Part shown: one piece after another, positions 177-41,239 of the stretch
Layout of the letters: each line of letters starts with the position of its first letter
Position numbering within the stretch: the first letter of the stretch is position 1
NCBI RefSeq assembly: GCF_903933125.1
Contig: NZ_CAIZIZ010000473.1
Location: forward strand, 1 to 46,241
Direction of reading: 5' to 3'
Length of the DNA: 46,241 nt
Source: an uncultured Lamprocystis sp.
GTDB lineage: Bacteria; Pseudomonadota; Gammaproteobacteria; Chromatiales; Chromatiaceae
Made by a program: the position numbers and the translations under genes
Notes under the pieces: model-generated
Told to the model about the DNA's origin: nothing
Seen by the model: only the letters and a program-made list of their open reading frames with translations
Database searches by the model: none

Positions 177-285
177 CGTTGTCGTTGTCGTTGTCGTTGT
201 CGTAATCGAGCTTATGATGCCGGCTATCGCATCGCATCGCATCGCATCGCACCGCGTCGTTTCGCTGTTCGAGCGTTGCAAGCTC
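177..285 (-). repeat. GTCGTT-ended intergenic element, copy A (truncated)
   Basis: An array of GTCGTT units runs into GTCGTAATCG at 177-208. On the minus strand the inner part reads GCTTGCAA, then GAAACGACGCGGTGCGA, then the CGATTACGAC end, matching copies B and D. The opposite end is missing; the copy fades out just before the ubiH start. Poly-threonine reading frames in this stretch are by-products of the repeat. Confidence 0.7.
226..250 (+). repeat. ATCGC pentanucleotide tandem repeat (5 copies)
   Basis: Five uninterrupted ATCGC units are followed by a degenerate ACCGC. The array sits inside element copy A and is absent from the homologous part of copies B and D, so it looks like a local expansion by slippage. 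Confidence 0.85.
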
Positions 286-306
286 TTCACATTCATTCGA
301 GCGTCC

Positions 307-1611
307 ATGCATCCAGAATCAAGCACCCGCCATCCCTCACCCGCCCCATGCCAGTCTCATTTCGATCTGGTGATCGTCGGCGGCGGGCTGATCGGCGGGT
401 CGCTGGCCTGTGCCCTGGCCGACACCGGGTTGCGGGTGGCCGTGGTGGAGGCGGTGGCGGCGGATGCCGCGGTCCAGCCGAGCTATGACGAACGGGTGAT
501 CGCCCTGTCTCTGGGCAGTCGTCGCATCCTGGGCGCCATCGGTGTGTGGGACGCGATTGCGCCGGAGGCGGAGCCCATCCTGCGGGTGCATATCGCCGAG
601 CGCGGCGGCTGTGGTACCACCCGGCTTGACCACGCCGAGTTGGGCGTCGCAGCACTGGGGTACGTGGCCAGCGCGCGCGCCATGGGCGCGGCCATCCGGG
701 CGGGTTTGGCGGCGGCGCCTCAGGTGGAATGGCTGTGCCCCGCACGCGTGATCAGCCAGCGGCTGCACGCCGACCGGGTGGATCTCGAGGTCCAGTGCGG
801 CGGCGAGACGCGCCGCCTGCATACGCGCCTCCTGGTGGCCGCGGACGGGGGCGATTCGCTGATCCGGCGCGACCAGGGGATCGCGGTCGAGGAGCGTCCC
901 TATGAACAGCAAGCCGTCATCACCACGGTGACACCGGACCGGCCGCTGACCGGCTGGGCCTTCGAACGCTTTACCGACACCGGGCCGCTGGCGCTGCTGC
1001 CCATGACCGGCGGGCGCTACTCGGTGGTCTGGACCTGTCGGGACACCGAGACCGCGGCGCTGCTGGGGCTGTCGGATGCCGACTTCCTGGCCCGCCTGCA
1101 GGGGCGCTTCGGGTTTCGGCTGGGCCGGTTGGGTCAGGCGGCACCGCGTCGCGCCTATCCGCTGAAGCTGCTGTTCACGCGCGAGACCGTCCGGCCGCGG
1201 CTGGTGCTCATCGGCAATGCCGCCCACACCCTGCATCCGGTGGCCGGTCAGGGGTTTAACCTGGGACTGCGCGACGTGGCCGCCCTGGCGGAGGTGCTGG
1301 CCCCCGTCGGCGAGCCGGTCGGCGCGCGCGGATTCGATCCGGGCGCGGCGACCGTGCTCGAGGCCTATCGCAGTTGGCGCGGGAACGATCAGCAGCGGAC
1401 GGCCGCCCTCACCGACACCCTGGCCCGGCTTTTCGTCAACCCTTGGCTGCCGCTGCGACTGGGGCGTAACCTGGGCCTGTTGGGGCTGGACCTGCTGCCG
1501 CCCGCGCGGCGCACGGTGGCGCGCCGTTTCATGGGCATCGGGGGCCGAGCGCCGCGTCTGGCGCGCGGTCTGCCCCTGAGTCGCAATCCAGCCGCGAATG
1601 AACGCCCATGA
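307..1611 (+). CDS. ubiH: UbiH-type FAD-dependent hydroxylase of ubiquinone biosynthesis
   Basis: A class A flavoprotein monooxygenase of 434 aa that would hydroxylate the ring of a polyprenylated ubiquinone precursor (2-octaprenyl-6-methoxyphenol hydroxylase in Escherichia coli). Seen: an N-terminal Rossmann FAD motif (VIVGGGLIGGSLA), and a C-terminal FAD site reading GNAAHTLHPVAGQGFNLGL, where Asn replaces the usual GD motif, as is typical of UbiH rather than UbiI/UbiF. I chose ATG 307 because the in-frame ATG at 214 would place the (ATCGC) repeat and element A inside the protein. The stop overlaps the next gene's start (ATGA), so the two hydroxylases are translationally coupled. The pepP gene that often precedes this pair is not in the window. 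Confidence 0.9.
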   Translation: MHPESSTRHPSPAPCQSHFDLVIVGGGLIGGSLACALADTGLRVAVVEAVAADAAVQPSYDERVIALSLGSRRILGAIGVWDAIAPEAEPILRVHIAERGGCGTTRLDHAELGVAALGYVASARAMGAAIRAGLAAAPQVEWLCPARVISQRLHADRVDLEVQCGGETRRLHTRLLVAADGGDSLIRRDQGIAVEERPYEQQAVITTVTPDRPLTGWAFERFTDTGPLALLPMTGGRYSVVWTCRDTETAALLGLSDADFLARLQGRFGFRLGRLGQAAPRRAYPLKLLFTRETVRPRLVLIGNAAHTLHPVAGQGFNLGLRDVAALAEVLAPVGEPVGARGFDPGAATVLEAYRSWRGNDQQRTAALTDTLARLFVNPWLPLRLGRNLGLLGLDLLPPARRTVARRFMGIGGRAPRLARGLPLSRNPAANERP

Positions 1612-2822
1612 ACACGAACTATGACTTGCTGGTCGTCGGCGGCGGCATGGTCGGTGCCGCCTTTGCCCTGGCTTGCTCGGGCAAGGGTCTCACGATCGGT
1701 GTGGTCGAGGCGCGCCCGCCGCGCCGCGCGTGGCCGGCCGGTGAGGTCGACCTGCGGGTCTCGGCCCTGTCGCGCGCCAGTGAGCGGATGCTGGCGCGAC
1801 TGGGTGCCTGGGAGCGCATCGGCGATCTGGGCGCCAGCCCGTACCGGCAGATGCGGGTCTGGGACGCCATCGGCGGCGGCAGCATCCAGTTCGACAGCGC
1901 GGACCTGGGCGAACCGGACCTGGGGCACATCGTCGAGAATCGGGTGATTCAACTGGCGCTCTGGGAGCGGCTGGAGTCACTGCCGGACCTGACGCTGATT
2001 TGTCCGGCGAGCATCGCCGAGCTGGAGCGCACGGCCGACGGCCCCGCGCTGGTGCTGGCCGATGGGCGGCGCCTGGGGGCGCGGCTGCTGGTGGCCGCGG
2101 ATGGCCGTGATTCGCTGATCCGCGACCTGGCAAGTATCCCCACCCAAGGGTGGGATTACGATCAACGCGCCATCGTCGCCACGGTCGTCACGGCCCAGTG
2201 GCACCAGGACACTGCCTGGCAGCGCTTCCTGCCGACCGGACCCCTGGCCTTCCTGCCCCTGCGCGACGGGCGTTGCTCCATCGTGTGGTCGGCCGACGGG
2301 TCACGGGCGGATGACCTGCTGGCGCTGGATGATGCCGCGTTCGGTCAGGCGCTCACCGACGCCTTCGAGCGCCGTCTGGGCCAGGTCCGGGTCGATGGCC
2401 CGCGGGCCTCGGTGGCGTTGCGTTTACAGCATGCGCAACGCTACGTGGAGTCGGGGCTCGCACTGATCGGCGATGCCGCCCACGCGATCCACCCCTTGGC
2501 AGGGCAGGGGGTCAACCTGGGCTTGCTCGATGCCGCTGAACTGGTGGCTGCTCTGGAACTGGCGTTGGAACGTGGTCGCGACCTCGCATCACTGTGGACT
2601 CTGCGCCGTTACGAGCGTGCCCGCCGCGGCGACAATCTGGCGATGTTGGCCGCGATGGACGGGTTCAAGCGTCTGTTCGGAAATGACATCGCACCGGTGG
2701 CCGCGCTCCGCGGTTGGGGGCTCGATCTGACCGACCGGGCGGTGCCCCTGAAGCGACGCTTCATGGACCGGGCCTTGGGTCTGAATCCCGGTCTGCCGCC
2801 GTTGGCGCGGCCCTGGAAATAA
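1608..2822 (+). CDS. ubiI: UbiI/VisC-family FAD-dependent ubiquinone hydroxylase
   Basis: A 404-aa paralogue of the upstream gene. The FAD motif VVGGGMVGAAFA is at the N-terminus, the family RDSLIR segment is near residue 170, and a canonical GDAAHAIHPLAGQGVNLGL motif lies near residue 290. The intact GD motif separates it from UbiH and points to UbiI/UbiF; 2-octaprenylphenol hydroxylase (UbiI) is the commonest partner of UbiH in gammaproteobacteria. Which ring carbon it attacks cannot be decided from sequence. It starts within the stop of ubiH, so both come from one mRNA. Confidence 0.85.
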   Translation: MNTNYDLLVVGGGMVGAAFALACSGKGLTIGVVEARPPRRAWPAGEVDLRVSALSRASERMLARLGAWERIGDLGASPYRQMRVWDAIGGGSIQFDSADLGEPDLGHIVENRVIQLALWERLESLPDLTLICPASIAELERTADGPALVLADGRRLGARLLVAADGRDSLIRDLASIPTQGWDYDQRAIVATVVTAQWHQDTAWQRFLPTGPLAFLPLRDGRCSIVWSADGSRADDLLALDDAAFGQALTDAFERRLGQVRVDGPRASVALRLQHAQRYVESGLALIGDAAHAIHPLAGQGVNLGLLDAAELVAALELALERGRDLASLWTLRRYERARRGDNLAMLAAMDGFKRLFGNDIAPVAALRGWGLDLTDRAVPLKRRFMDRALGLNPGLPPLARPWK

Positions 2823-2985
2823 TTAGACTTGGAGTGGGCGCACATTTTGGGTAGCCTTGCGCCCGGTCCGGGCCGACGTAACGGCTGGCGCGACACGCGA
2901 CGGTCATGCGTAGCGTTCGGCGCCCGATCAGCGCCGGTTGCGCTGTGACCCGATCCCCTGGTTTCGTTCCGAGTGTTGAGATCCT

Positions 2986-3348: not shown

Positions 3349-3456
3349 GTGCTGAGATCATGCCCACTGCAGCCGTCGGCAACCGGTACGACGCCATGGC
3401 GGGACTGGCGGGCGCAGTAAGAACAATTCGAGACTGAACCAAACGAGGGGAGACCA

Positions 3457-4710: not shown

Positions 4711-4719
4711 CATGCCTGG

Positions 4720-4747
4720 TCGGCAGGGGGTCGCTGCCTCCTGCCGA
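4720..4747 (+). other. Intergenic hairpin downstream of pfp
   Basis: TCGGCAGG (4720-4727) pairs with CCTGCCGA (4740-4747) across a 12-nt loop just after the pfp stop. No U-tract follows, so it is more likely an mRNA-stabilising or partial attenuating hairpin than a full terminator. Confidence 0.4.
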
Positions 4748-4779
4748 GGCCCGGCTTGCATCATAAGAAAAGGCCCGCC

Positions 4780-7071: not shown

Positions 7072-7081
7072 TCGATCCTGC

Positions 7082-11613: not shown

Positions 11614-11705
11614 GTGGGAGCGGCCTCCGGCCGCGATGGGGCCATCGTGAACTCCGACGCTGCGAGATCCGGCGAGCCCCCATCGCGGCCGGAGGCCGCT
11701 CCCAC
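11614..11705. repeat. Long inverted repeat with perfect 28-bp arms
   Basis: Positions 11614-11641 and 11678-11705 are exact reverse complements separated by 36 nt. Each arm contains its own GC-rich palindrome (GCGGCCTCCGGCCGC). REP/BIME-like and probably also a strong transcriptional block after the mutase gene. Confidence 0.85.
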
Positions 11706-12089: not shown

Positions 12090-12247
12090 CGTAATCATTC
12101 TCGTCGATCGGGTTTCGATTCGCTACGTCGTCTGGGGCGCGGGACCAACGCATCGTTGCGATGCTTGCAAAGCAAGGACCGTGAAACGACGCGGTGCGAG
12201 AGAATCCTGGGCGGCACGATAACCTCGATTACAACAACGACAACGAC
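12090..12247 (+). repeat. GTCGTT-ended intergenic element, copy B
   Basis: The right end CGATTACAAC-(AACGAC)2 is at 12226-12247. The left end is degenerate, beginning at GTAATC (12091). Inside are the family blocks GGTTTCGATTCGCTACGTCG, GCATCGTTGCGATGCTTGCAA and GAAACGACGCGGTGCGA. The same blocks occur on the opposite strand in copy D and partly in copies A and E. Confidence 0.75.
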
Positions 12248-12258
12248 CGAGGCGCCTG

Positions 12259-12296: not shown

Positions 12297-12737
12297 TTAA
12301 GTCGCCGCTGTTCCAGCACCTGCCAGCCAGTGCGCCACGTCTCGAACGAATGCACCGAGGTCCGCGGGGATCTGCTGAAGGTGGTCGTAGACCTGGCTAA
12401 CGTCGAGTTCGAGGTAGCCGTGGACCAGGATGTTGCGGAAGCGACCAAAGCCCCGCAGACGGGCGCGGGTGTGGGCAGAAATGACACCGGTTTCCAAAAG
12501 TGCGTTCAGACCCTGCTCATTAGTTTCCGGAAAGCGGTCGAAGTGTCCGGCGAGGATGTGGTTGGTAATGTCCAATGCCGCCTCTGCCGCGAGTTGGATG
12601 CCGCGCTCGGCGGCCCAGTGGATGCGGAAATCGGCGATGAATGCCTCGCGAGGGATCGCCGCCAAGGGCTCCAGCCGGCGAATGGTCTCGTCGAGTTTTT
12701 TCAGGCGTTGTTCGACGACGCGGGGTTCCAGTGTCAC
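12297..12737 (-). CDS. hepT: HEPN-domain toxin of a HepT/MntA pair
   Basis: A 146-aa all-helical HEPN (DUF86-like) protein, a predicted RNA-cleaving toxin. The family catalytic motif RX4HXY is intact as RNILVHGY: Arg101, His106, Tyr108. In the studied Shewanella pair, the tyrosine of this motif is the residue the antitoxin AMPylates to silence the toxin. The start is GTG 12737, because its GTGA overlaps the stop of the upstream nucleotidyltransferase gene (12734-12736); longer in-frame extensions would run antisense to nothing recognisable and through that gene. An RNase role is inferred from the family. Confidence 0.88.
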   Translation of the reverse strand: MTLEPRVVEQRLKKLDETIRRLEPLAAIPREAFIADFRIHWAAERGIQLAAEAALDITNHILAGHFDRFPETNEQGLNALLETGVISAHTRARLRGFGRFRNILVHGYLELDVSQVYDHLQQIPADLGAFVRDVAHWLAGAGTAAT

Positions 12738-13144
12738 GCTGATGTCCGCCGTGCACAGAGCGCGCTGAATTGGATCCGGCGACGGTAGGCGGAGTCCTGG
12801 TAGTCGCGCATGGCGGCAAGTTCGAAGCGATTGACCAGCGATTGATCGCGGGTGAATAACAGGTGTCCGGACTTGATGACCTGGAACTTGAGTACGGGGC
12901 CGGCCTGGTGGAGATCGATCAGGTCGACCGCGTCGGTGGCAATGAGGTCGGTGATGTCGGCGCCCAGTGCCAGCAGGCGCCGCAAGCTCAGTGGTTGCGC
13001 CGCCAGCACCGCGAGATCGAGATCGCGCGGGTTCCGGCAGGTGGGGTCCGTTTGGGAGCCGAAACAATAGCCGGCCACCAGGTCCGGCGCATCGCGCAGG
13101 AGCGTGGTCAGTCTCGTGAAATCGGTGTCGTCCAGTTTGCGCAT
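12734..13144 (-). CDS. mntA: MNT-type nucleotidyltransferase antitoxin
   Basis: A minimal nucleotidyltransferase of 136 aa. The polymerase-beta-like motif GS-x10-DxD is complete (Gly29-Ser30, Asp41, Asp43), with a likely third acidic residue at Asp77 in VDLIDL. MntA antitoxins AMPylate the HEPN toxin on its RX4HXY tyrosine. It is the first gene of the pair and is translationally coupled to hepT. The pair sits between element B and the exonuclease gene, an accessory position. Confidence 0.88.
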   Translation of the reverse strand: MRKLDDTDFTRLTTLLRDAPDLVAGYCFGSQTDPTCRNPRDLDLAVLAAQPLSLRRLLALGADITDLIATDAVDLIDLHQAGPVLKFQVIKSGHLLFTRDQSLVNRFELAAMRDYQDSAYRRRIQFSALCARRTSA

Positions 13145-13244
13145 CGGGGATAGGTCGGTTGCCGACGTTGAACCAGGCCGACGCTGGCCAAGTCGTCAGA
13201 GTACGCCAGGCGCCGCCCGGTCTCAACCCGTCAGCCGGCCCGAC

Positions 13245-17883: not shown

Positions 17884-17973
17884 GGGTGTCCGGCTCCAGC
17901 GGGAGTGGCTTGGGTGTGGCTGGGAGGGCCTGAGGAACTGTTCAGTCCGTTAGGTGAGGCCTTCTGGGTCGCG

Positions 17974-18136
<163 letters not shown>

Positions 18137-18247
18137 TGTGTCTAATTTGTCGTTGAGGCGTTACTTGCCCGGTCCGCCCGGTCCGGCGGCGTCCCGGCAT
18201 TGTTGAGTTGTCCTGTCGCGTCTGTCAACGTGCGTGCCCACAAAGAC

Positions 18248-23084: not shown

Positions 23085-23296
23085 GTCGTTGTCGTTGTCG
23101 TAATCGAGGTGACGATACCCGCGAGGATTCGCTCGCACCGCGTTGTTTCGCAGCCCCTGCGTTGCAAGCAGCGCAACGATGCCTTTGGTTCCGTGCGCGG
23201 ATATCGAAGCTTTTCAAGCGCTTGGTGGCCTTCTAGGCCCAGGCGACGGAGCGAATCCAAACCGCCTCTCCGATTACGATTACGACAACGACAACG
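23085..23296 (-). repeat. GTCGTT-ended intergenic element, copy D
   Basis: (GTCGTT)2-GTCGTAATCG lies at 23085-23106 and CGATTACGATTACGACAACG onward at 23271-23296, so the ends are complementary. Read on the minus strand, the interior carries the family blocks in the order seen in copy B: GGATTCGCTCCGTCGCCTGG, GCATCGTTGCGCTGCTTGCAA, GAAACAACGCGGTGCGA. It fills most of the 368-nt gap before ubiG; no gene is seen there. Confidence 0.85.
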
Positions 23297-23373
23297 AAAC
23301 CACCAGTGCAACGGCTGTGTTCGCGTTTAACTTGTTCCTGATGCGTTTCTAACGCCAACGAGAGGCTGCACCG

Positions 23374-24141
23374 ATGGCATCTACTCAACTGACTGGAGCC
23401 AACATTGATCCGGCCGAAGTCGCCTATTACGAACGCCTGGCCCACCGGTGGTGGGATACCGCGGGGCCGTTCTGGCCGCTGCACCGACTCAATACCTTTC
23501 GGGTCGGTTACCTGCGTGATCGGATTGCGCAGACGCTGGGTTTGGATCCGCGGCAGGAGCGTCCGTTCGCGGGCTTGCGCGTGCTCGATATCGGCTGCGG
23601 CGGCGGTATCTTAAGCGAGTCCGTGGCCCGCCTGGGGGCCACGGTGGTCGGCGTCGATGTGACTGAGAAAAACCTCGGTGTGGCACGCCTGCACGCCGGC
23701 TGGAGCGGCTTGACGATCGACTACCGGTTGGAATCCGTCGATCAACTGGCCGATTCCGGGATCGTCTTCGACCTGGTGCTGAACATGGAAGTGGTGGAGC
23801 ATGTCGAGCGGCTGCCGGACTTTCTTGCGCACTGTGCCCGCCTGGTCCGGCCGGGCGGTATCATGGTGGTGTCCAGCATCAATCGGACCGTCGCGGCGGC
23901 CCTGATCGCGATCTTTGGGGCGGAGTATGTCCTGCGCTGGTTGCCGAGAGGGACCCACCAGTACCGCAAACTGGTGCGTCCGGGCGAGGTGATCGCCGGT
24001 CTGGGTGCGGATTATCGGGTCTTGGATCGGACCGGGGTGCGGGTCAACCCGTTCAACCGGGCCTTCTCCCTGACCCGGTGGATGGGGGTGAACTATATGC
24101 TCGTGATGCAGCGAGCGGCTAGGGAGTCCGTAATCGGTTGA
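23374..24141 (+). CDS. ubiG: UbiG O-methyltransferase of ubiquinone biosynthesis
   Basis: A 255-aa class I SAM methyltransferase that performs both O-methylations of the ubiquinone ring. Motif I is VLDIGCGGGILSE near residue 70, followed by VVGVDVTEKN and the UbiG-specific LNMEVVEHV near residue 140. The N-terminal WWDTAGPFWPLHRLN also fits UbiG. ATG 23374 has GAGAGG upstream. The gene is flanked on both sides by GTCGTT elements in opposite orientation and stands apart from other ubi genes. Confidence 0.95.
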   Translation: MASTQLTGANIDPAEVAYYERLAHRWWDTAGPFWPLHRLNTFRVGYLRDRIAQTLGLDPRQERPFAGLRVLDIGCGGGILSESVARLGATVVGVDVTEKNLGVARLHAGWSGLTIDYRLESVDQLADSGIVFDLVLNMEVVEHVERLPDFLAHCARLVRPGGIMVVSSINRTVAAALIAIFGAEYVLRWLPRGTHQYRKLVRPGEVIAGLGADYRVLDRTGVRVNPFNRAFSLTRWMGVNYMLVMQRAARESVIG

Positions 24142-24154
24142 ACTGCGAATACAA

Positions 24155-24376
24155 TCGTTGTCGTTGTCGTTGTCGGATAAGCGTTTTTTATCGGGCATGC
24201 ACTGTCCGATGCCTGGCTGGTTTCGACTCGCTACCTTGCCTGGGCGTGCACGGTTGCTAAAACTCCAAATGGCCTCGATCGCTGGGCCAGGAGCCAAGGA
24301 ATCGTGACAATGATTGCAATCGGTCAGCGAAACTACGCGGTACAAGATCGATTACGACAACGACAACGACAACGAC
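24155..24376 (+). repeat. GTCGTT-ended intergenic element, copy E
   Basis: Left array of GTCGTT units at 24155-24175 leads directly into GGATAAGCG; right end CGATTACGAC-(AACGAC)3 at 24349-24376. Interior blocks: GGTTTCGACTCGCTACCTTG (as in B), then TTGCAA and GCGAAACTACGCGG near the right end. It starts 14 nt after the ubiG stop. Confidence 0.85.
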
Positions 24377-29511: not shown

Positions 29512-30432
29512 ATGGCAGAGCGCGTCGGTTTCATCGGGCTGGGGATCATGGGTCGCCCCATGGCGCTGAATCTGCTGCGCGCCGGGTGGAACCTGGCGGT
29601 CTATGCCCGTCGCCCGGAGTCCATGGAACCCCTGGCCGCGGCCGGTGCCGCGACCTGCGATAGCCCGGCGGACGTCGCCCGCCACGCGGATATCCTCTTC
29701 ACCATGGTGGCGGACACCGCCGACGTGGAGCAGGTCATCCTTGGGCCGGGCGGGGTCATCGAAGGGGCGAGCCCCGGCGCCGTGCTGGTGGATATGAGCA
29801 CCATCTCGCCCGCCGTCACCCGCACCATCGCCGCACGGTTGCGCGCGCGCGGTCTGGCCATGCTCGATGCCCCGGTCTCGGGCGGTGAGGCTGGCGCCAT
29901 CGCGGGCACGCTATCGATCATGGTCGGCGGCGAGGCGGCGGTCTTCGAGCGGGTCCGACCGCTGTTCGCGGCGCTGGGGCGCAACATCGTCCATGTGGGC
30001 GGAAGTGGTGCTGGCCAGGTCTGCAAGTCATGTAACCAAATCGTGGTGGGTGCGACCATCGTCGGGGTCGCTGAGGCGATCCTGCTGGCGCGCGCCTCCG
30101 GTGTCGATCCGGCGCGGGTCCGTGAGGCGTTGCTGGGTGGATTCGCCGCCAGCCGTATCCTGGAGGTCCACGGACAGCGCATGATCGACAGCGATTTCGC
30201 TCCTGGCTTCAAAGCGCGGCTGCACCAGAAGGATATGCGCATCGTCGGCGAGTCCGCGCTTGAACTTGGCCTGGCATTGCCGAGCGCCGCGACCATCGCC
30301 CAATACCTCAACGCCCTGGTCGGCCAAGGGCTGGGTGAGGAAGACTCTGCGGCCATTTACAAGGTGTTGGAGGCCATGAGCGGCAGCCGGAGCGCGCATG
30401 GCGGATTGGTTCCCGCGGAATCACCATGCTGA
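29512..30432 (+). CDS. garR: 2-hydroxy-3-oxopropionate (tartronate semialdehyde) reductase
   Basis: A 306-aa beta-hydroxyacid dehydrogenase reducing tartronate semialdehyde to glycerate with NAD(P)H. Motifs: GFIGLGIMGRPMALNL (nucleotide binding), DAPVSGGEAGA (substrate binding), GSGAGQVCKSCNQ with the catalytic Lys, and KDMRI. GGAG precedes ATG 29512 by 8 nt; a GTG at 29503 is less likely. Next to glcEF it completes glycolate to glyoxylate to tartronate semialdehyde to glycerate, except that glyoxylate carboligase is not in the window. The name garR/glxR is by function. Confidence 0.9.
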   Translation: MAERVGFIGLGIMGRPMALNLLRAGWNLAVYARRPESMEPLAAAGAATCDSPADVARHADILFTMVADTADVEQVILGPGGVIEGASPGAVLVDMSTISPAVTRTIAARLRARGLAMLDAPVSGGEAGAIAGTLSIMVGGEAAVFERVRPLFAALGRNIVHVGGSGAGQVCKSCNQIVVGATIVGVAEAILLARASGVDPARVREALLGGFAASRILEVHGQRMIDSDFAPGFKARLHQKDMRIVGESALELGLALPSAATIAQYLNALVGQGLGEEDSAAIYKVLEAMSGSRSAHGGLVPAESPC

Positions 30433-31214
30433 TCATTCGCACTGAACAAATCGCGCAGTTGGCCGCCGACGAGGTGAAGCGCTTCAACGTTCGCTTGCAG
30501 CGGCATCTGCTGGTGTCGTTCCCGTTGCAGACCGCGATGGCGAGTGAGCAGTCACTCGGCGAATTCGTGGACTTCGCGATGACGCAAGCAGCGGCGGTCG
30601 GCATCGATACGGAAGCGACGGTCCAGTCATTCGCTGATCACATGGTTCTCCTGGGGGCGGATTTCCACCGGAATCCGCTCTATGCGGACATCGCGGCGCC
30701 CTTGTTCGACCAGGATCTCGTCAGCCCCATTCAGCGTCTCGATCTCGTCTACGACCGCGCCTGGAGCTACCTCGACGCCACCCGTGGCCCGGATGCGGCC
30801 AACCTGATTCGAGCCATGGCAAGACTCAGAGCCACCTTGGGTACGCCCAAAGAGGGATGGAGCGTCACGACTGATGACCTGATTCAGACACTCCATCGTA
30901 TTTTCCCCGAAAAGTGCGGTGCGCACTCCGTGTCGACGCTGACCAGGTTCTGCGGCGGAACCCTGGCGCGCGCCTGGGAGGATGGCTTCGAGCAGCCGCC
31001 GGCTCGCGTGCTCTATGTCTGTGTCGCCTTTCTCGCCGGACTCGGATTCTTCCGCGATCCTTTGGTGTTGGGGGGGGCGCTGCACTATGCGCAGGCACTG
31101 GCCGCGGAACGCGATCCGGCGCGCCGTACCAAGCTGTTGGGTCGCGGCGTGGCGCTGTATCTCGACACGATGTTGGCGAAGGTGCGCGGCGCGTCGCTGC
31201 TGATCGAGGAATAA
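30426..31214 (+). CDS. Hypothetical protein of a putative effector cassette
   Basis: A 262-aa cytosolic, mostly helical protein that starts inside the end of garR (7-nt overlap). The N-terminal pattern (LIIRTEQIAQL, then a helical stretch ending FVDFAMTQAAAVGID) resembles small conserved proteins that sit beside VgrG/PAAR loci of type VI secretion systems and begin with an IR-x-Q-M helix. That is a pattern impression, not a verified hit. It ends 4 nt before the metallopeptidase-like gene and is surely cotranscribed. Possible chaperone/adaptor. Confidence 0.6.
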   Translation: MLIIRTEQIAQLAADEVKRFNVRLQRHLLVSFPLQTAMASEQSLGEFVDFAMTQAAAVGIDTEATVQSFADHMVLLGADFHRNPLYADIAAPLFDQDLVSPIQRLDLVYDRAWSYLDATRGPDAANLIRAMARLRATLGTPKEGWSVTTDDLIQTLHRIFPEKCGAHSVSTLTRFCGGTLARAWEDGFEQPPARVLYVCVAFLAGLGFFRDPLVLGGALHYAQALAAERDPARRTKLLGRGVALYLDTMLAKVRGASLLIEE

Positions 31215-31218
31215 TACA

Positions 31219-32688
31219 ATGGGTTGGTGTTCGAAACCAGATAAGGCGTCCACGGCGGCTGAAAAGAAGGGATGCGACAAGAAGGTCGGCGATCCCAAGC
31301 AGCCTTGCCCGTTGGCCGATCCCAATATCGTTTCCATCGGCTGGTTGGACGGCGCCGATGACAAGGAGGTGGCCACGGCCGATCAGTGGGTCAACCTGCC
31401 GAAAGAAGATAAGTGGGTCAATGGCGCGGAGATCCAGAACAAAGACCGCCTGGGACTCAAGCCGCGGCTGAAAGTCAAGTTCGACAAACCGGGGTCGCAC
31501 GCCTTCAAGGTCAAGCTGCTGGCACCAACGGGAACCGACGCCTACACCGATACCGAGAAGGGCCGCAATGCTAACTTCAAATACACGGAAGACGAGAAAA
31601 GCTACACCACGGACGCGGACGGCACCAAGATCATCGACGGCGACTTCGCGTTGGTGGCGGGTGGCGGCTACAAGTTCAAGGCCCAGGCCAAAGACAGTAA
31701 GGATAAGGTTGTCAAGACCGGGGACCTCACCACCAAGCGCCTATTCTACTATGTCGAGGCGAAGATGACGGGGTTGACCTCGGTGCTGTCGTCCACGGCA
31801 CCGGTCGACACCGAATATGACAAGCATTACATGGTGCTGAAAAAGCACAGCGCGCTGTCCATTGCCCATCAAAGCAATATCGGCAGCGACACCGATACCG
31901 ACACCTTGTCGGGCAACGTGGATACCGCGGTTGATGCCGACGCGACCGTCAAGCCGACCAAGCCCTATTTGTTGACCGTGGCCTACACGGATCATCTCGC
32001 GGTCAAGCACGCCGACGTGGTGGTCCAGAGTGCCACGGTCGACGTGGGTCCCGGCAAGCCCAAGGTCGTCATTCCGGTCACGGCGGCGGGGTTGCTGTCG
32101 CCGAACACCGTGGCGACCCGTTATCTGTGGCACGATCTGGTTGCGGGTGAGAGCTGGTTCGTCGAGGCCAAATTCAAGCCGGACGGCGGCGGGGAATCCA
32201 CGATTGCAGCCGATAAAGTGACTCACAAGGGGACTGGAGACTATTGGAACGAGGTCGAGGTGGACGTTGCGTCCCTGCCGGCCGGCCGGGGCAAGGTCGA
32301 GGTCAAGGTGAATGTGGTCGACCGGATGCGCGGCGGCCTGGCGCTCGGCGGCGCCAATCAAACCTGTGTCTGTACCAGAGCCTGGTGGAGTGATCAGCCC
32401 GACGCGAAACAGGAGTGTACCATCATCCACGAAATCGGCCACAAGGTCGGGATGGTGGCGAATGGTACGGGTGCGCTGCCGGACAAGGTGGCGACGCATT
32501 ATTCAGGTAAGGGTCATGCCGGGGATCATTGCTTCAAGGGCTGTCCGGATGGCGAGGCCAGCTATTCGACCAGCGCGAATCTCTCCGCATCGCAATGCGT
32601 CATCTTCGGGGCAGTGAACAGCAAGAACGCCTTCTGCGACAACTGCGAGAAGGCCGTCAAGAAACTGGACATCGGCAGCGGCTGGTAG
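31219..32688 (+). CDS. HEIGH zinc-metallopeptidase-like protein, putative secreted effector
   Basis: A 489-aa protein without a signal peptide. Residues 1-35 are Lys/Cys-rich. About 60-370 is beta-rich, with spaced domains that look like Ig-type sandwiches; it is polar and repetitive in Lys/Asp/Thr. The C-terminal domain holds HEIGH (His404, Glu405, His408), followed by His427, His433 and His437 as candidate third zinc ligands and several cysteines (438, 442 and four near the end). Absence of a signal peptide plus an active-site HExxH suggests export by a contractile (type VI-like) machine, or phage-like use. The flanking genes support an effector operon. Target unknown; zinc protease activity is inferred from the motif. 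Confidence 0.65.
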   Translation: MGWCSKPDKASTAAEKKGCDKKVGDPKQPCPLADPNIVSIGWLDGADDKEVATADQWVNLPKEDKWVNGAEIQNKDRLGLKPRLKVKFDKPGSHAFKVKLLAPTGTDAYTDTEKGRNANFKYTEDEKSYTTDADGTKIIDGDFALVAGGGYKFKAQAKDSKDKVVKTGDLTTKRLFYYVEAKMTGLTSVLSSTAPVDTEYDKHYMVLKKHSALSIAHQSNIGSDTDTDTLSGNVDTAVDADATVKPTKPYLLTVAYTDHLAVKHADVVVQSATVDVGPGKPKVVIPVTAAGLLSPNTVATRYLWHDLVAGESWFVEAKFKPDGGGESTIAADKVTHKGTGDYWNEVEVDVASLPAGRGKVEVKVNVVDRMRGGLALGGANQTCVCTRAWWSDQPDAKQECTIIHEIGHKVGMVANGTGALPDKVATHYSGKGHAGDHCFKGCPDGEASYSTSANLSASQCVIFGAVNSKNAFCDNCEKAVKKLDIGSGW

Positions 32689-32723
32689 TCTGCGCTTGAT
32701 GTCATCACCAGAGGGCAGGCAGG

Positions 32724-33200
32724 ATGGACTTTATCCCGGACCAGTTTCGCGAGGTCGCACTCGGTACCTTCGCGCAAGCGGTGTGTTCACCCGCGGCGCC
32801 ATCGTCCGATTGGAGTGGGGTCCGGATCACGGCGCCGCAACGCATCACCATCGCTGCCGGTGAGCGTCCGGTGGTGCCGATCTGCGGCTATTTTCTGGTC
32901 CCGGTGCTGGCCGCCATGGATGGGCCGCCGCTGGGTGTGCAAGTGCGTCATGTCGCGACCAAGGTCATTGTGCGCGGTACGGTGATGGAGGAAGGCGGCA
33001 ACGAACCGGAGGAGCCGCCGCCGCCCGATGCCCCCACGGCGAGCCGTGAGTCCCTCGCCGGGGTGTCGACCGGCGGCTATTTCAACATCGATGCGCAGCG
33101 CTATCTCCCGAAACTCCTGGCGCCTGGGGTCTATGATGTCGTCGTCACCTACGCCGGGTCGAACTCGAATGTCCTGCGAGTCGAGATTGAAGGCATCTGA
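32724..33200 (+). CDS. Hypothetical beta-rich protein, possible partner/immunity protein
   Basis: A 158-aa protein without a signal peptide. Two beta-rich halves are joined by an acidic/proline linker (EPEEPPPPDAPTAS, about 93-106). The C-terminal half contains GVSTGGYFNID and ends in alternating hydrophobics, typical of a small beta sandwich. It follows the metallopeptidase-like gene by 35 nt, where an immunity or adaptor protein would be expected. Function not recognised. Confidence 0.55.
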   Translation: MDFIPDQFREVALGTFAQAVCSPAAPSSDWSGVRITAPQRITIAAGERPVVPICGYFLVPVLAAMDGPPLGVQVRHVATKVIVRGTVMEEGGNEPEEPPPPDAPTASRESLAGVSTGGYFNIDAQRYLPKLLAPGVYDVVVTYAGSNSNVLRVEIEGI

Positions 33201-33214
33201 TTCCCTGGAGGTTT

Positions 33215-34741
33215 ATGGATAGCGACGCAAACCGCGAGGCGCCTCGATCGGCCTTGATCATCATCCCGGCCAGCTCACCGACCGCGAAGTCGCTGGTCCG
33301 CACAGCGGACCCTACGGATCTGACCGATCCACTCGGCGATCCGCGGTGGTGGGTTTTTTCCACTTATTTCGCCCAGGGCTTCCCCTACATGGTGGTGCGC
33401 GCCATGTCGTCGGTCTTTTTCACCGATGTCGGGATGTCGGAGCGCGCGCTGGGTTATCTCAACTTCCTTGGCCTGCCCTGGAATCTGAAGTTCTTGTGGG
33501 CGCCCTTCGTGGATATCTACTCCACCCGGCGTACCTGGATGATCCTGATCCAGGCCCTGCTGACCGTGCTGACCGCGCTGCTGGCCGGACTCTGCCTCCT
33601 GCGCGGGGACGGGGCGGGGTTGCCCGACGCTATTCTGGTGTGGCTCTTCATCGTCTTGGCGTTCCTCGCGGCCACCAATGATATCGCCATCGACGGTTAT
33701 TACATGGAGGGCATCAGCGACCCCAAGCAGCAGGCCGCCTATACCGGGTTGCGGGTCACGGCCTACCGTCTGGCGATGATCGTGGCGCGCTTTGGCATCA
33801 TCCTGGCGGTCGCGGAGGTCGCCAAGCATGCGTTCGGCGGCAATCTGTACAGCGCCTGGGGTTGCGGTTTTGCGGCGGGGGCGGCGGTGATGGCCGTCCT
33901 GACCATACTGCATCTGGTCAAGCTCCCGCGCTACCAGCAGCCGCGGGAGCGCAGCGTCGGTGGCCGTCACGCGGGCGCCGCCTTCCTGAACTCCTTCGCC
34001 GCTTACCTTGAGGTCTCGCCGCGTCGCTCACTCATCGCGCTGGTCAGCGCTCCCCTGCTTGGCTTGGCCCTGAGCGCGGTCCTCCTGGCGTTGGGTGTCC
34101 CTGGGGTGCAGGCCCTGACCTATGGCTTCGCCTTCATGCTGATCGCTTTGCTGGCCCAGGCCAAGCCTGCGATTGCACTGAGTCTGGCCTTTATCATGTT
34201 CTACAAGATCGGCGATGAGATCATCTTCTCGATGGGGACGCCGTTTCTCAAGCGCTATCTGCTGGTGGACAACACGCAACTCGCCTGGATGAGCGGTCTG
34301 CTGGGGTTGGTGGGTTCCATCATCGGGACCACGATCGGCGGACTCTGGATCAAACGCACCGGCTTGCGCCGGGCCATCTGGCCGCTGACGCTGTTGATGA
34401 ATCTCAATATCCTCGCCTACATCTGGCTGGCCTATGAGCGCCCGCTGGCGACCAGCACGCTGGGATTCCTGACCATCGGGACTGTCTACACGATCGAGCA
34501 GATCGCCGCGGGTCTGGGTAACGCCGTCCTCATCGTCTACATTCTGCGTACCTGTAAACCCGAGTTCAAGGCCGGGCATTACGCCATCGGATCGGCTTTC
34601 ATGTCGGTGTTCTCCGCCCTGTTCGGCGGGATGGGCGGAGTCATCGTCGAACAGGTCGACTATATCGGCCTTTTCACCATTGGTTTCCTGGCCTCGCTGC
34701 CGGCGATGGCACTGTTGTTTTTCGTGCGGGTCAAAGATTGA
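33215..34741 (+). CDS. AmpG-type MFS permease (muropeptide transporter family)
   Basis: A 508-aa major facilitator with about 12-14 membrane helices after a 40-residue cytosolic N-terminus. AmpG hallmarks: FAQGFPYMVVRA near helix 1, LPWNLKFLWAPFVD in the loop, and ATNDIAIDGYYMEG (matching the family DIAIDAxR motif, with Tyr for Arg). Likely imports anhydromuropeptides for cell-wall recycling. CTGGAGG lies directly before ATG 33215. It follows the effector cassette by 14 nt and may share its transcript, but the link could be accidental. Confidence 0.82.
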   Translation: MDSDANREAPRSALIIIPASSPTAKSLVRTADPTDLTDPLGDPRWWVFSTYFAQGFPYMVVRAMSSVFFTDVGMSERALGYLNFLGLPWNLKFLWAPFVDIYSTRRTWMILIQALLTVLTALLAGLCLLRGDGAGLPDAILVWLFIVLAFLAATNDIAIDGYYMEGISDPKQQAAYTGLRVTAYRLAMIVARFGIILAVAEVAKHAFGGNLYSAWGCGFAAGAAVMAVLTILHLVKLPRYQQPRERSVGGRHAGAAFLNSFAAYLEVSPRRSLIALVSAPLLGLALSAVLLALGVPGVQALTYGFAFMLIALLAQAKPAIALSLAFIMFYKIGDEIIFSMGTPFLKRYLLVDNTQLAWMSGLLGLVGSIIGTTIGGLWIKRTGLRRAIWPLTLLMNLNILAYIWLAYERPLATSTLGFLTIGTVYTIEQIAAGLGNAVLIVYILRTCKPEFKAGHYAIGSAFMSVFSALFGGMGGVIVEQVDYIGLFTIGFLASLPAMALLFFVRVKD

Positions 34742-36715: not shown

Positions 36716-36725
36716 GGCGCTCTCC

Positions 36726-37214: not shown

Positions 37215-37305
37215 CGGACTATGGACCTGGCGGAAGGTTGAATCGTCGGTAGCGGAAAGCATAAGGGCAAACGGCGGCGAAGCGAAGGGTGCACTGCGCT
37301 GATGC

Positions 37306-38910
37306 CTAAGCGCCGAACACCATATCGGCCGCGCTCTGCCACAGGGGTTGGCCCAGGCCGTAGCGCAGCGCGAGTGCCAACGGGATCGGTCCTTGGGAGA
37401 CCAAGCGGTCATGAAAGGCCCGCTCGGCGAATCCCGTGCCGTCGCGTGCTTCCTGTTGCGTCCGCGCCGCTTCCAGCAGTCGCCAGCCGAGCACCGCGGC
37501 CAGTGCATCACCCGGCGCGAGCACGATGCATGCGAAGGCCGCCTCCGCAGTCGTCTCAGGGATCCCGTGGGAACGCAGGCGCGCCAGGGCTTGGGCGCTA
37601 TCGATGCGGCCGGTATGCAGGCCCAGGTCGAGTTCGGCCCGCCGCAGGCAGTCGCGCCGGGCGATCAGTGTCCAATGGTGCTGGTCGCCGGCGTGAACTC
37701 CCGTGCGTCCCAGCCGGTCCGTCAGATAGAGGTGCCAGCCCCCTGTCAGTGAGACGGCGTTGGCGAGTCGGCGCGGCAGGCGCCGCGCCCGCGCCGCGTC
37801 GGCGTAGGCCAGCAAGTGACTGCCGCCCCACCCCTTGACGAGACAACGGTCGCGGATACGGGCATCGGACTCGGTCCCGAGGTCGCCGGCGGACAGATAC
37901 AGGGTCCCCGTTCCATCCGCCGCCGGGAGGTAGTCCGTGTGGGCGCGCCGCGGCCCCGCGCAAGTCGGGCGCAGGTCGATGCGCAGGGGGGCGTCGGGCA
38001 GGGTAACGAGGCCGCTCGCGGTGAGTTGGGCCGCGAGTTCATCAGCGCGTTCGCGATACTGCTGCAGTCGGGCCGGCGGCGCGGTCGGCGCTTCAGATCC
38101 CGACACGGCATCCTGATTCAGGTCGTCCGTCAAGCGACTCAGTTCACCTTCAGTCGCCCGCAGCATCCCGGCAATGGAGTCACCCAGGATTTCCGGATCG
38201 CAGTCGATGCAATGGAGATAGCGCAACCGCAGTTGCAGGTGTGTGCTTCCGCAGCCGGGTTCCCCCCGCGCTCGGTTAGCCAACTCGGTCGTCAACAGGT
38301 GGCCGAAGCCGGTCAGGGCATCAGCGGCCGATTCCGCCAGGTTTTGTAGTCTATGGGGCGCGCGCGCGTGGTCGCGCAGCCAGGTGCTCCGCGCCAGGTG
38401 ACGCAGATAACAGCAACCGCTCGCGGCCTCCGCGGCGGCGACGCGCACCAGGGGCGCGCTGAGCGCTGCCGCCGTCTCACGCAGTTGGGCCTGGGCCTGG
38501 CGCAGGTGTTCCGGTACCTGTTCCAGGAGTTGGGGCAGGGCGCCGTCCAGCGCCCGCATCGGGTCCAGGGTCAGGCGGTCGATCTCCGCGACCGGCAGAA
38601 AGTGCAGGGGGTCGAGCCAGCGCCAGTCGCGCGTCAGGGACTCCTGATGCTCGATCCGCGCGGCGCCGACGAGCAGCTCGTAGTCCAGTTGCCGATCCGC
38701 GTCCAACGCGGTGAATGCGATCTCATCCAGGCCCAGGATCAGGGCCTCGATCCAGCCGCGCAGGGCGGCGCGATCATCGTCCTCTTGCGGCGGGAGCAAG
38801 CGGCCCGACACCGGGAAGCCAAGTTCCAAAGCGCGGTCCGGGTGGTAGCGAAACCAACCCTCATAGAACTCCGCGACGACGGCGTCGAATGCGGCCGCCG
38901 CTTCAAGCAT
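37306..38910 (-). CDS. DUF885 protein lacking the zinc-site motifs (pseudo-peptidase)
   Basis: A 534-aa cytosolic protein with the helical build of the DUF885 family, whose active members carry HExxPGHH and EGWALY zinc motifs. Here the first motif region reads VKGWGGSH (358-365), so the His, Glu and second His are replaced by Val, Lys and Ser. The second region reads GGWHLY (390-395), so the ligand Glu is Gly. Unless the alignment is wrong, metal binding and catalysis are lost. The frame is intact with normal codon use, so it is maintained. It overlaps the upstream OsmC gene by 8 nt. Confidence 0.7.
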   Translation of the reverse strand: MLEAAAAFDAVVAEFYEGWFRYHPDRALELGFPVSGRLLPPQEDDDRAALRGWIEALILGLDEIAFTALDADRQLDYELLVGAARIEHQESLTRDWRWLDPLHFLPVAEIDRLTLDPMRALDGALPQLLEQVPEHLRQAQAQLRETAAALSAPLVRVAAAEAASGCCYLRHLARSTWLRDHARAPHRLQNLAESAADALTGFGHLLTTELANRARGEPGCGSTHLQLRLRYLHCIDCDPEILGDSIAGMLRATEGELSRLTDDLNQDAVSGSEAPTAPPARLQQYRERADELAAQLTASGLVTLPDAPLRIDLRPTCAGPRRAHTDYLPAADGTGTLYLSAGDLGTESDARIRDRCLVKGWGGSHLLAYADAARARRLPRRLANAVSLTGGWHLYLTDRLGRTGVHAGDQHHWTLIARRDCLRRAELDLGLHTGRIDSAQALARLRSHGIPETTAEAAFACIVLAPGDALAAVLGWRLLEAARTQQEARDGTGFAERAFHDRLVSQGPIPLALALRYGLGQPLWQSAADMVFGA

Positions 38911-39319
38911 CGCGGATCTCGAAGTCGTGGGTGACAGTGGCGACGGCTCCGAGCATGATAGAGGCCGAGCAATATTTGTCGGCGCTCAATTTGATCGCAC
39001 GTTCGACCTGACGGGGGTCAAGGTTCCGTCCGGTGAGGATAAAGTGGGCGTGGATGCTGGTGAAGACCTTGGGGTCGGCGGGTGCCCGCTCAGCGGTCAG
39101 TTCGAGCACGCAATCGGTGACCTGCTGCCGCGCCTTGCGCAGGATCGAGAGCACGTCGAACTCGGTGCAGCCGCCCATCCCCAACAGCAGCAACTCCATC
39201 GGGCGCACCCCAACATTGCGTCCGCCCGCGTCCGGCGGACCGTCCATGACGATACCGTGTCCGGATTCGGACTCGCCGAGCATGGCAACCCCATCGATCC
39301 ACTTCACCCGAGCCTTCAT
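38903..39319 (-). CDS. OsmC/Ohr-family protein (YhfA-like)
   Basis: A 138-aa OsmC-fold protein. The two family cysteines are present, Cys51 (MGGCTEFD) and Cys117 (KYCSAS), consistent with thiol-peroxide chemistry or a related role. N-terminal KARVKWIDGVAMLGE fits the YhfA branch. ATG 39319 is chosen over a TTG 12 nt upstream; GGGGGTG serves as ribosome site. Coupled to the DUF885 gene. Confidence 0.88.
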   Translation of the reverse strand: MKARVKWIDGVAMLGESESGHGIVMDGPPDAGGRNVGVRPMELLLLGMGGCTEFDVLSILRKARQQVTDCVLELTAERAPADPKVFTSIHAHFILTGRNLDPRQVERAIKLSADKYCSASIMLGAVATVTHDFEIRDA

Positions 39320-39475
39320 GAACACCCCCAAAGCAGTCGATCCGGGACGCCGCCGCGGCGTCCGTACTGACGCCGCAGGCTACCATAGTTCGACAAGGCG
39401 CAGATGCTCGCCTAAGATTCCCAATTAACTCGTGCGCTGCCCCGCAGCGCCATTGTCCGACGAAGGCCGCGACCG

Positions 39476-40129
39476 ATGACCATCCTGATCCCACCCAAGC
39501 AAGAACCCCGCTGGCTCCAGCCATTCCTGTCTCACTGCCATACCAAGTCCTACGACAAGAACGTGGACTTCATCCGCGTCGGGGAGCCGGCAGAGAGCAT
39601 CTATTACCTGATCGAGGGCTCGGTGGCCGCCGTCATCGACGACGAAGAGCGCCGCGAACTCTTGTTGGCCTATATCAATAAGGGTGAGTTCATCGGCGAG
39701 ATGGGGCTGTTCATGCCGTTGAACACCCGTAGCGTCATCGTGCGGACCCGCATGAAATGCAAGGTCGCGGAGATCACCTATCAGCGTCTCGACCGGCTGC
39801 TCGACAACGAATTGAAGGATGTGGCCAAGGAATTTCTCTATGCCGTCGGTCTGCAACTGTCGACGCGGTTGCGCCAAACCAGCCGTAAAGTCGGTCACTT
39901 GGCCTTCCTCGATGTGACCGGGCGGATCGCCGGTACCTTACTTGATTTGTGTAAGCAACCGGACGCCATGACGCATCCGGACGGTATGCAGATCCGCATC
40001 ACGCGCCAGGAGATCGGGCGCATCGTCGGTTGCTCACGCGAAATGGCCGGGCGGGTGTTGAAGAGCCTGGAGGAGCAGGGACTGATCAGCGTGGCGGGTA
40101 AGACGATCGTGGTGTTCGGCACTCGTTAG
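39476..40129 (+). CDS. crp: Crp/Vfr-type transcription regulator
   Basis: A 217-aa CRP-family activator. The cyclic-nucleotide pocket GEFIGEMGLF followed by NTRSVIVRTR retains the Glu and Arg-Ser pair used for cAMP binding. The C-terminal helix-turn-helix (RITRQEIGRIVGCSREMAGR, about 174-193) has the SREMxGR recognition helix of CRP/Vfr. CGAAGG precedes ATG 39476. A global regulator of carbon use; no autoregulatory site is evident upstream. Confidence 0.92.
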   Translation: MTILIPPKQEPRWLQPFLSHCHTKSYDKNVDFIRVGEPAESIYYLIEGSVAAVIDDEERRELLLAYINKGEFIGEMGLFMPLNTRSVIVRTRMKCKVAEITYQRLDRLLDNELKDVAKEFLYAVGLQLSTRLRQTSRKVGHLAFLDVTGRIAGTLLDLCKQPDAMTHPDGMQIRITRQEIGRIVGCSREMAGRVLKSLEEQGLISVAGKTIVVFGTR

Positions 40130-40143
40130 GATGCGCTTCGCGC

Positions 40144-40941
40144 TCAGAAAAATAACCGCCGCAGCTCGGTTCCCGGGTCGGGGGCGCGCATGAAGGCTTC
40201 GCCGACCAGGAAGGCGTGGACCCCATGGTGGCGCATCAGGGTGACTGATTCCGCGCTCAGGATGCCGCTCTCGGTCACCAGGAGCCGGTCGGCGGGCACC
40301 GCGTCCAGCAGCTCCAGTGTGGTGTCCAGCGTCACCTCGAAGGTGCGCAAATTCCGGTTGTTGATCCCGATCAGCCGGCCCGGCACGGCCAGGGCGCGCG
40401 ACAACTCGGCGGCTTCGTGTACCTCCACCAGCACGTCCATGTCCAGTCCCTGGGCCAGGGCGCTCAGGTCGCGTAACCGCGCATCGTCCAGGCAGGCCGC
40501 GATCAGCAGGATGCAATCCGCGCCGATCGCGCGCGCCTCATACACCTGATAGGGGTCGATGATGAAATCCTTGCGGATCACCGGCAAGCTGCAGGCGGCG
40601 CGCGCTTCGACGAGGTAGGCATCGCTGCCCTGGAAGAAATCGATGTCGGTCAGCACCGACAGGCAGGCGGCTCCGCCGCGCTCATAGCTCGCCGCGATCG
40701 TCCCCGGAGCAAAATCCGCCCGCAGTACCCCCTTGCTCGGACTGGCGCGTTTGATCTCGGCGATCACTGCCGGCTGGCCGGCCGCGATGCGTGTTTCCAG
40801 GGCCGCGGCGAAGCCGCGTACCGGTGGTGCCGCGGCCAGCCGGGCCTGGAGTGCCGTCAGCGGCAGGTGCGCGGCGCGAGCCGCCACCTCTTCGACTTTG
40901 CGGTGGCAGATCTTTTTCAGAATATCAGGGGTTCCGGGCAT
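40144..40941 (-). CDS. trpC: Indole-3-glycerol phosphate synthase
   Basis: A 265-aa TIM-barrel enzyme of tryptophan synthesis, with [10 protein letters not shown] (catalytic Lys, near residue 62), [13 protein letters not shown] (catalytic Lys) and IGINNRNL. Monofunctional; no TrpF domain is fused. ATG 40941 gives the family length. It is separated from trpD by 354 nt that contain a GTCGTT element, whereas trpG and trpD are 7 nt apart. Convergent with crp, 14 nt away. Confidence 0.95.
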
Positions 40942-41064
40942 GGCTGAGACATCTCGTGCTGAGCGGAAAAGCAAACGCAAACGCGAAGACGTAAATCCTT
41001 CGCGAGCTGGTACAGAGATTCCGGCAAGCACCTAAGTAACTAGCCAGGAACAAGTTAAGCACAA

Positions 41065-41239
41065 TCGTTGTCGTTGTCGTAATCGGATAGCGATTGGGTA
41101 GTCCTGAAATCGGTAGGCGAAGCCCTGCAACACTGACCGGGAACGATCGAAAAATCGGAGGATTACCGCTTCCCGCCCTCTTCGAGGATCCGTCGATTGT
41201 GGCACTACCCATCCACTCGATTACGACAACGACAACGAC
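41065..41239 (+). repeat. GTCGTT-ended intergenic element, copy F, inside the trp gene run
   Basis: Left end at 41065-41085 with GTCGTAATCG followed by GGATAGCGATT as in copy C; right end CGATTACGAC-(AACGAC)2 at 41218-41239. The arms are complementary over about 21 bp. The interior is otherwise diverged from the other copies. It occupies the gap between trpD (stop 41296) and trpC (start 40941). Confidence 0.82.

What the first reader, a model, noticed from the sequence alone, without database searches (positions are those of the whole stretch)
177..41239. Family of oriented intergenic elements with complementary hexanucleotide-array ends
Six copies (177-285, 12090-12247, 17974-18136, 23085-23296, 24155-24376, 41065-41239) have ends (GTCGTT)n-GTCGTAATCG and CGATTACGAC-(AACGAC)n, which can pair into a stem of 20 bp or more. 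Five share ordered internal blocks: GGTTTCGATTCGCTACGTCG, then GCATCGTTGCGATGCTTGCAA (minor variants), then GAAACGACGCGGTGCGA. B, C, E and F lie in plus orientation, A and D in minus. All are outside genes, and no transposase is present. This fits a MITE-like or structured-RNA family whose array ends vary in copy number from 2 to 6. I know of no named family with this build.
Basis: partly seen in the sequence, partly recalled or inferred. Interest (0 to 1): 0.78.

Follow-up and report, generated by a model that had tools for sequence, protein, structure and literature searches.

The report
Foldback mini-transposon with hexamer-repeat arms
The window carries copies of a small, gene-less, mobile-looking DNA element of purple sulfur bacteria whose middle is a hairpin built from variable runs of the six-letter repeat GTCGTT, a body plan better known from fruit-fly 'foldback' transposons than from bacteria.

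Summary
The hexamer arrays are real and far beyond chance, but they are not the ends of the element. Outside them lie two conserved outer ends, e2 (GTAACGAGTC..AAGTTAAAC) and e1 (GGAACCGTTCAC..TAAAC..), imperfect inverted repeats of each other (consensus 20 of 27 positions). In complete Candidatus Thiodictyon syntrophicum, 43 of 44 facing end pairs under 600 bp join one e1 to one e2. In 20 copies fetched from a sister genome the flanks are unrelated and the limits sharp. Ends abut TNA; left and right trinucleotides agree more often than re-paired ones (11 of 44, expected 5.4, p=0.006), which suggests a 3-bp target duplication. e1 tips coincide with the upstream gene's stop codon in 9 of 35 cases. 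So this is a MITE-like element with inverted arrays as inner arms and a variable, sometimes flipped core. No transposase partner and only one tidy presence/absence site were found; most differences between sister genomes are deletions. A structured-RNA reading is not supported. The same hexamer palindrome sits inside a second MITE-like family with unrelated ends in three other Chromatiaceae genera. The searches made found no description in print. Filed as a new variant of a known kind; why unrelated ends share one repeat-built hairpin is open.

The parts
161..285 (-). Copy A, broken: piece of e2 (161-176), left array 177-203, part of the core; no right array, no e1. Its outer tip is cut off by another repeat (window 1-160)
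   Evidence: in sister G142 the same locus has both arrays and the other repeat inserted in e2
12102..12256 (+). Copy B, broken: core with blocks 1-3, right array 12234-12247, 9 bases of e1; no left array, no e2
17934..18164 (+). Copy C: e1 (left, diverged, after TGA 17931-17933), array 17974-17990, core flipped relative to the ends, array 18096-18136, e2 (right, tip 18164)
   Evidence: ortholog in G142 with a shorter right array
23085..23349 (-). Copy D: arrays 23085-23101 and 23282-23297, core with blocks 1-3, e2 on the right (tip 23349); e1 not recognisable
24120..24376 (+). Copy E: diverged e2 on the left, arrays 24155-24175 and 24354-24376, core; e1 not recognisable
   Evidence: absent from G168, a different copy in G142
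41036..41296 (+). Copy F, both ends present: e2 41036-41064, array 41065-41080, core, array 41223-41239, e1 41240-41296; flanked by TAA (41033-41035) and TAG (41297-41299)
   Evidence: e1 tip at the stop codon of ORF 41296-42318
41240..41296 (-). Outer end e1 of copy F
   Evidence: profile match E 5.4e-13
41036..41070 (+). Outer end e2 of copy F
   Evidence: profile match E 2.2e-08

Best explanation
A family of short, gene-less, transposon-like elements (MITE-like) of the genus Thiodictyon, with relatives in other Chromatiaceae. It has two unlike ends, e1 and e2, that are imperfect terminal inverted repeats and abut TNA, which is probably duplicated on insertion. A transposase acting in trans, not found here, most likely recognises e1 and e2 and inserts at TNA; the stop codons TAA and TGA fit TNA, so gene ends are frequent and harmless landing places. 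Between the ends lie two inverted arrays of the hexamer GTCGTT/AACGAC around a variable core. The arrays change length independently, probably by slippage, and can pair, so the interior is deleted, flipped or filled with other repeats while the outer ends persist. Shown: copy number, defined ends, the one-e1-plus-one-e2 rule, TNA statistics, array and core variation, flipped cores. Inferred: mobilisation in trans, slippage, hairpin-driven deletion and inversion, and that the arrays may act as extra transposase-binding sites, as stated for the Galileo foldback element.
For: Two conserved outer ends beyond the arrays. 15 near full-length copies of one G107 element in G127 at 81-87% identity; 20 G127 copies aligned with sharp limits and unrelated flanks. 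Consensus ends match at 20 of 27 positions. In complete G107, 43 of 44 facing pairs under 600 bp are e1 with e2, 39 of 44 spaced 135-239 bp. TNA on the left in 32 and the right in 23 of 44; identical trinucleotides 11 of 44 against 5.4, p=0.006. Stop codon at the e1 tip in 9 of 35, inside the element in 3. A complete copy in another genus has TTA on both sides. Outer end and core side linked in 77 of 85 arms. Restricted to the family in the samples: 32 of 194 family genomes, 0 of 365 genomes of the class outside the family for a 22-mer.
Against: No autonomous copy found. Comparison with sister genomes mostly shows deletions that leave end remnants, not clean empty sites; one 86-bp element present in G168 and absent in G142 is the only tidy case, and its junction shows no clear TNA duplication. 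The 3-mer window for the TNA test was chosen after seeing some of the same copies, and 33 of 44 pairs do not match. 115 of 203 ends in G107 have no partner within 600 bp. Ends are imperfect inverted repeats. The stop-codon rows include at least one locus counted in two genomes (L057 and L158).
Confidence: 0.72

Rival explanations
1. REPIN-type elements moved by a Y1 (RAYT) transposase.
For: Palindromic, intergenic, high copy; Y1 genes occur in 7 of 8 genomes of the genus.
Against: None of 30 Y1 loci inspected (of 83 matches) has e1 or e2 nearby; one (L201) has a lone GTCGTTGTCGTTG stretch without ends. TNA duplication is not expected of Y1 transposition (recalled).
Confidence: 0.06
2. A transcribed structured element kept for a function at gene ends (terminator, mRNA stabiliser); spread is incidental.
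For: Arms can pair; e1 carries a short hairpin ACGCC-TTT-GGCGT; e1 tips often at stop codons; copy F lies between two trp-like ORFs on one strand.
Against: No covariation in the core; no Rfam match in the window; copies at orthologous sites are lost or replaced in sister species.
Confidence: 0.12
3. The hexamer palindrome is itself the mobile part and inserts into older e1-e2 elements and into other MITEs.
For: Minimal e1-e2 elements without palindrome exist; two loci are minimal in G168 and full in the host (L157/L073, L163/L019, by eye); the palindrome occurs between unrelated ends.
Against: Core side and outer end are linked in 77 of 85 arms, so the unit is inherited whole; no duplication tested around the palindrome; minimal forms are equally explained by deletion.
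Confidence: 0.09
4. Independent microsatellites that happen to lie near each other.
For: Array length varies like a microsatellite.
Against: Arrays come as left/right pairs with fixed inner motifs and linked outer ends.
Confidence: 0.01

Closest known systems
BrickBuilt MITE of Porphyromonas gingivalis (PMC4596501; abstract and passages seen)
   Same: Bacterial, intergenic, gene-less MITE with short inverted ends and an internal tandem array; 19 copies in one strain
   Different: One direct 23-nt array, not two inverted hexamer arrays; unrelated sequence and host
Foldback elements of Drosophila, e.g. Tetris and Galileo (PMC4079207; passages seen)
   Same: Inverted arms that hold tandem repeats around a middle domain; no autonomous copy found for Tetris; Galileo arm repeats hold extra transposase sites (stated there)
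   Different: Eukaryotic, far longer repeat units (about 220 bp in Tetris); no sequence relation tested
GTAG and CGTC REP families (PMC3733652; abstract, passages and section 16 seen)
   Same: Palindromic, intergenic, high copy, often in inverted pairs; some associated with long inverted repeats
   Different: 20-40 bp units with GTAG or CGTC tags; here two distinct ends, TNA flanks and hexamer arrays; no Y1 gene found beside copies
TAACTGA heptamer repeats of Beggiatoaceae and Cyanobacteria (PMC4679880; abstract and outline seen)
   Same: Short intergenic tandem repeats in sulfur bacteria, variable unit number
   Different: Nearly all direct repeats, mostly just upstream of starts; no outer ends in what was seen

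Membership tests
MITE | Short, no transposase gene, many copies | tested here: met
   39 of 44 G107 pairs 135-239 bp apart; 135 array sites in the host
MITE | Terminal inverted repeats | tested here: met
   Imperfect: consensus e1 and e2 agree at 20 of 27 positions; pairs are e1 with e2 in 43 of 44
MITE | Target-site duplication | tested here: inconclusive
   11 of 44 exact TNA-type 3-mers against 5.4 expected, p=0.006; significant, but the window was chosen after inspection and most old copies do not match
MITE | Shares ends with an autonomous transposon | tested here: inconclusive
   Not found among five facing pairs 2-7 kb apart in G107, one of them not fetched; other genomes not searched for this
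REPIN / REP-RAYT | Associated Y1 transposase gene | tested here: not met
   0 of 30 Y1 loci inspected, of 83 matches, with e1 or e2
Foldback element | Long inverted arms made of variable tandem repeats around a variable middle | tested here: met
   Arms 15-57 bp, cores 11-440 bp in 39 host elements; anatomy only, relation to eukaryotic elements not tested
Structured RNA family | Conserved fold with compensatory changes | tested here: not met
   2 of 24 pairs, unfavourable covariation term, 14 copies; Rfam 0 matches in the window
IS5-family (IS1031-type, recalled) derivative | Ends and transposase of that group | not tested
   Only the TNA habit is suggestive, and that is recalled; no end comparison was made

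The most novel reading that the evidence does not exclude
One repeat-built hairpin, (GTCGTT)n-GTCGTAATCG...CGATTACGAC-(AACGAC)n, is carried by at least two MITE-like families with unrelated ends (e1/e2 at TNA; TAGTGCAGCA..TGCTGCACTA at TA) across four genera of one bacterial family. This would mean that a common factor, of the host or of transposases, reads the hexamer array and favours elements that carry it: a transferable foldback module in bacteria.
Probability: 0.3. Interest if true: 0.75.

Novelty: new variant of a known kind. Interest (0 to 1): 0.52.

Why it matters
Foldback architecture, inverted arms made of variable tandem repeats, is known from eukaryotic transposons. A bacterial family with the same anatomy, with over 100 array sites in some genomes and changing between sister species, gives a system in which array growth, hairpin deletion and core inversion can be followed. 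Ending at stop codons (TNA) would show how an element can sit at gene ends without harm. The sharing of one hairpin between unrelated end types is a concrete, testable puzzle.

Tried and rejected
Arrays as element ends: rejected after the flank listings and the 20-copy alignment. Structured RNA: not supported; in five element loci the only Rfam match above its cut-off was a neighbouring tRNA. Coding origin of the core (a stop-free frame in a consensus): no Pfam match, and deletions break the frame by eye. Y1/RAYT: no support in 30 of 83 loci. Clean empty sites: sought for copies B-F against G168 and G142, for three minimal host copies and for a G107 copy in G127; mostly deletions with end remnants. 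A five-base duplication TRAGG was suggested by two sites by eye and dropped. Autonomous copy; the IS1634-family gene found there has its own inverted ends. Exact hexamer strings in papers: 53 papers, of which the 20 listed look unrelated by title. The Thiodictyon genome paper was searched for repeat, transposase, insertion, palindrom, MITE and intergenic only. That IS1031-type IS5 elements use TNA is recalled.

Errors and dropped rows: alignment A4 held five wrongly placed references and was discarded for A5. In one search, 44 of 45 end pairs were used; one lacked a right flank. In one search one of 8 flipped arms (L278) looks mis-sorted by the pattern, leaving 7. One search mixed the two end types and was not used.
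Full report
What was checked first. The window is one contig (C473) of a 7.1-Mb assembly in 589 contigs. The arm sequence CGATTACGACAACGAC occurs 9 times in the window at up to one mismatch, against 0 in 100 shuffles, and 135 times in the genome against 0 for the reversed control. Of the six copies listed, four have both arms; A and B have one. The three internal blocks are found in 3, 2 and 4 of the 6 copies at up to three mismatches, so 'five share ordered blocks' is overstated.

Where it lives. In the family survey 32 of 194 genomes, host included, hold the 16-mer, with up to 665 sites in one genome of the same genus (G127); the family was sampled. In a class sample a longer 22-mer was found in 1 of 369 genomes, the host; 365 of the 369 lie outside the family. 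One relative, G107, is Candidatus Thiodictyon syntrophicum Cad16T: its contig C3 has the length of plasmid pTs485 (484,824) and the match lies at the same place. An exact 24-mer of e1 found three loci in genome contigs, all in an uncultured Thiodictyon bin (the tool may leave out the host).

The outer ends. A list of 120 array arms with their flanks showed two conserved outer sequences. e1 reads TNA|GGAACCGTTCACTAATAAGCTAAACAAGTCCATTAGGGAACGCCTTTGGCGT and e2 reads TNA|GTAACGAGTCAGAAATAAGTTAAACAACGAATACAA (consensus). One G107 element matches 15 places in G127 over nearly its whole length at 81-87%. Twenty G127 loci, aligned with the G107 copy, show sharp limits GTAACGAG...GAACCGTTCC and unrelated flanks; L270, L273 and L274 have a broken e1 and L272 is cut by its contig end. 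Those listed with both ends are 184-216 bp long. The consensus ends match at 20 of 27 positions without gaps, reached by 0 of 100,000 shuffles. In G107 the models found 111 e2 and 92 e1 ends. Of 49 facing pairs within 8 kb, 44 are under 600 bp; 43 of these join e1 to e2 and one joins e2 to e2. 115 of the 203 ends have no such partner, which fits decay.

Target site. Over 44 pairs from several genomes the left trinucleotide is TNA in 32 and the right in 23. The two are identical in 11, against 5.4 expected from re-pairing (p=0.006); the middle base agrees in 20 against 13.4 (p=0.018). The position was chosen after seeing some of these copies, and 33 of 44 do not match. A copy with both ends in another genus (G188) has TTA on both sides (read from the printed sequence). 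Among 35 e1 tips with a gene-like frame reading toward them, the stop codon sits at the tip in 9, inside the element in 3 and 7 to 196 bases before it in 23; of the 22 e2 tips, five lie within 4 bases of it. Genes here are open frames of 80 codons with G+C-rich third positions, not annotations. In copy F the tip overlaps the stop codon of an ORF with TrpD-type domains, and an IGPS (TrpC-type) ORF lies on the other side on the same strand.

The interior. In 39 host elements the arms are 15-57 bp long, uncorrelated (r=-0.02), and the cores 11-440 bp. Other repeats are nested in some cores (by eye). Outer end and core side are linked in 77 of 85 arms; in 8 (7 after removing a mis-sorted one) the core is flipped, including the G142 ortholog of copy C, whose right array is also shorter than in the window. 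Short e1-e2 elements without a palindrome exist in the host and in G168; two loci are minimal in G168 and full in the host by flank comparison (L157/L073, L163/L019). The 14-copy core alignment shows 2 of 24 pairs changed on both sides and an unfavourable covariation term.

Sister genomes. G142 and G168 are about 93% identical to and collinear with the window region. At the sites of B, C, D and F, G168 keeps pieces of e1 or e2 without the interior; at E it shows none. In G142, C is filled, E holds a copy with a different interior, F is replaced by other sequence, and B and D are missing. Three further host copies and one G107 copy also gave deletions with remnants, or unclear sites. The one tidy indel is an 86-bp minimal element in G168, absent in G142; it shows no clear TNA duplication.

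Who moves it. Y1 transposase genes are common in the genus (83 matches), but none of the 30 loci inspected has these ends. Five facing pairs 2-7 kb apart in G107 were considered. The 2.3-kb pair encloses two ORFs that look metabolic from their translations (no family search). The 2.7-kb and 4.0-kb pairs join ends of separate copies. The 5.1-kb pair holds an IS1634-family gene with its own inverted ends. The 7.0-kb pair was not fetched. The mover is unknown.

A second family with the same hairpin. Of 34 hexamer loci fetched from nine genomes of three other genera, 17 match a profile of ends TAGTGCAGCAGTGCAGATGTTCCGAGACCG at E 1e-4 or better, 3 match e1 or e2 at 0.01 or better, and the rest match neither or only through the array part. 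The profile was built partly from these loci. Fifteen rows with both ends (one locus listed twice) are 114-162 bp; the left tip begins with TA in 12 and the right ends with TA in 11. The profile has no match in the 14 Thiodictyon stretches tested. In 400 kb of G188 both families occur. So one repeat-built hairpin sits between unrelated ends. Transfer of the module, or common descent with replaced ends, cannot be told apart here.

What it works like and what it is. By anatomy it works like a foldback element. By the tests made it fits a MITE except that no autonomous partner was found and the target duplication is statistical. The nearest bacterial relative in kind that I saw is BrickBuilt of P. 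gingivalis, a MITE with one direct tandem array (PMC4596501, abstract and passages). For Galileo, repeats inside the arms are said to hold additional transposase sites (PMC4079207, passages); I propose the same for the hexamer arrays, as inference. Searches for a description in print showed none in the listings seen; subscription papers are mostly not held.

Noticed in passing
window 1-160: Another repeat with ends TAGCAGCCTGTCGGACTT..AAGTCCGACAGGCTGCTA, cut by the contig start, sits inside the e2 end of copy A; whole copies are seen in G142, and one lies beside a minimal element in G168 (L163).
   Followed up: partly
window 11614-11705: A 28-bp perfect inverted repeat GTGGGAGCGGCCTCCGGCC.. 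in an intergenic stretch that is present in G142 and missing in G168.
   Followed up: no
window 30390-33324: About 2.9 kb with three ORFs (no Pfam match at 0.001) is present in the window and missing at the same place in both G142 and G168.
   Followed up: partly
window 12297-13226: ORF beside copy B with a HepT-like ribonuclease domain at its C-terminal part.
   Followed up: no
L010, L029, L032, L044 (host genome): A third context of the hexamer palindrome: short core and flanks resembling GAGATTCCGGGTACGCTGTCCTG, unlike e1/e2 (by eye).
   Followed up: no
G142:C2 against G168:C14 (L119-L136): Many intergenic differences between these sister genomes are presence or absence of several other short repeat families, some nested in one another.
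   Followed up: no
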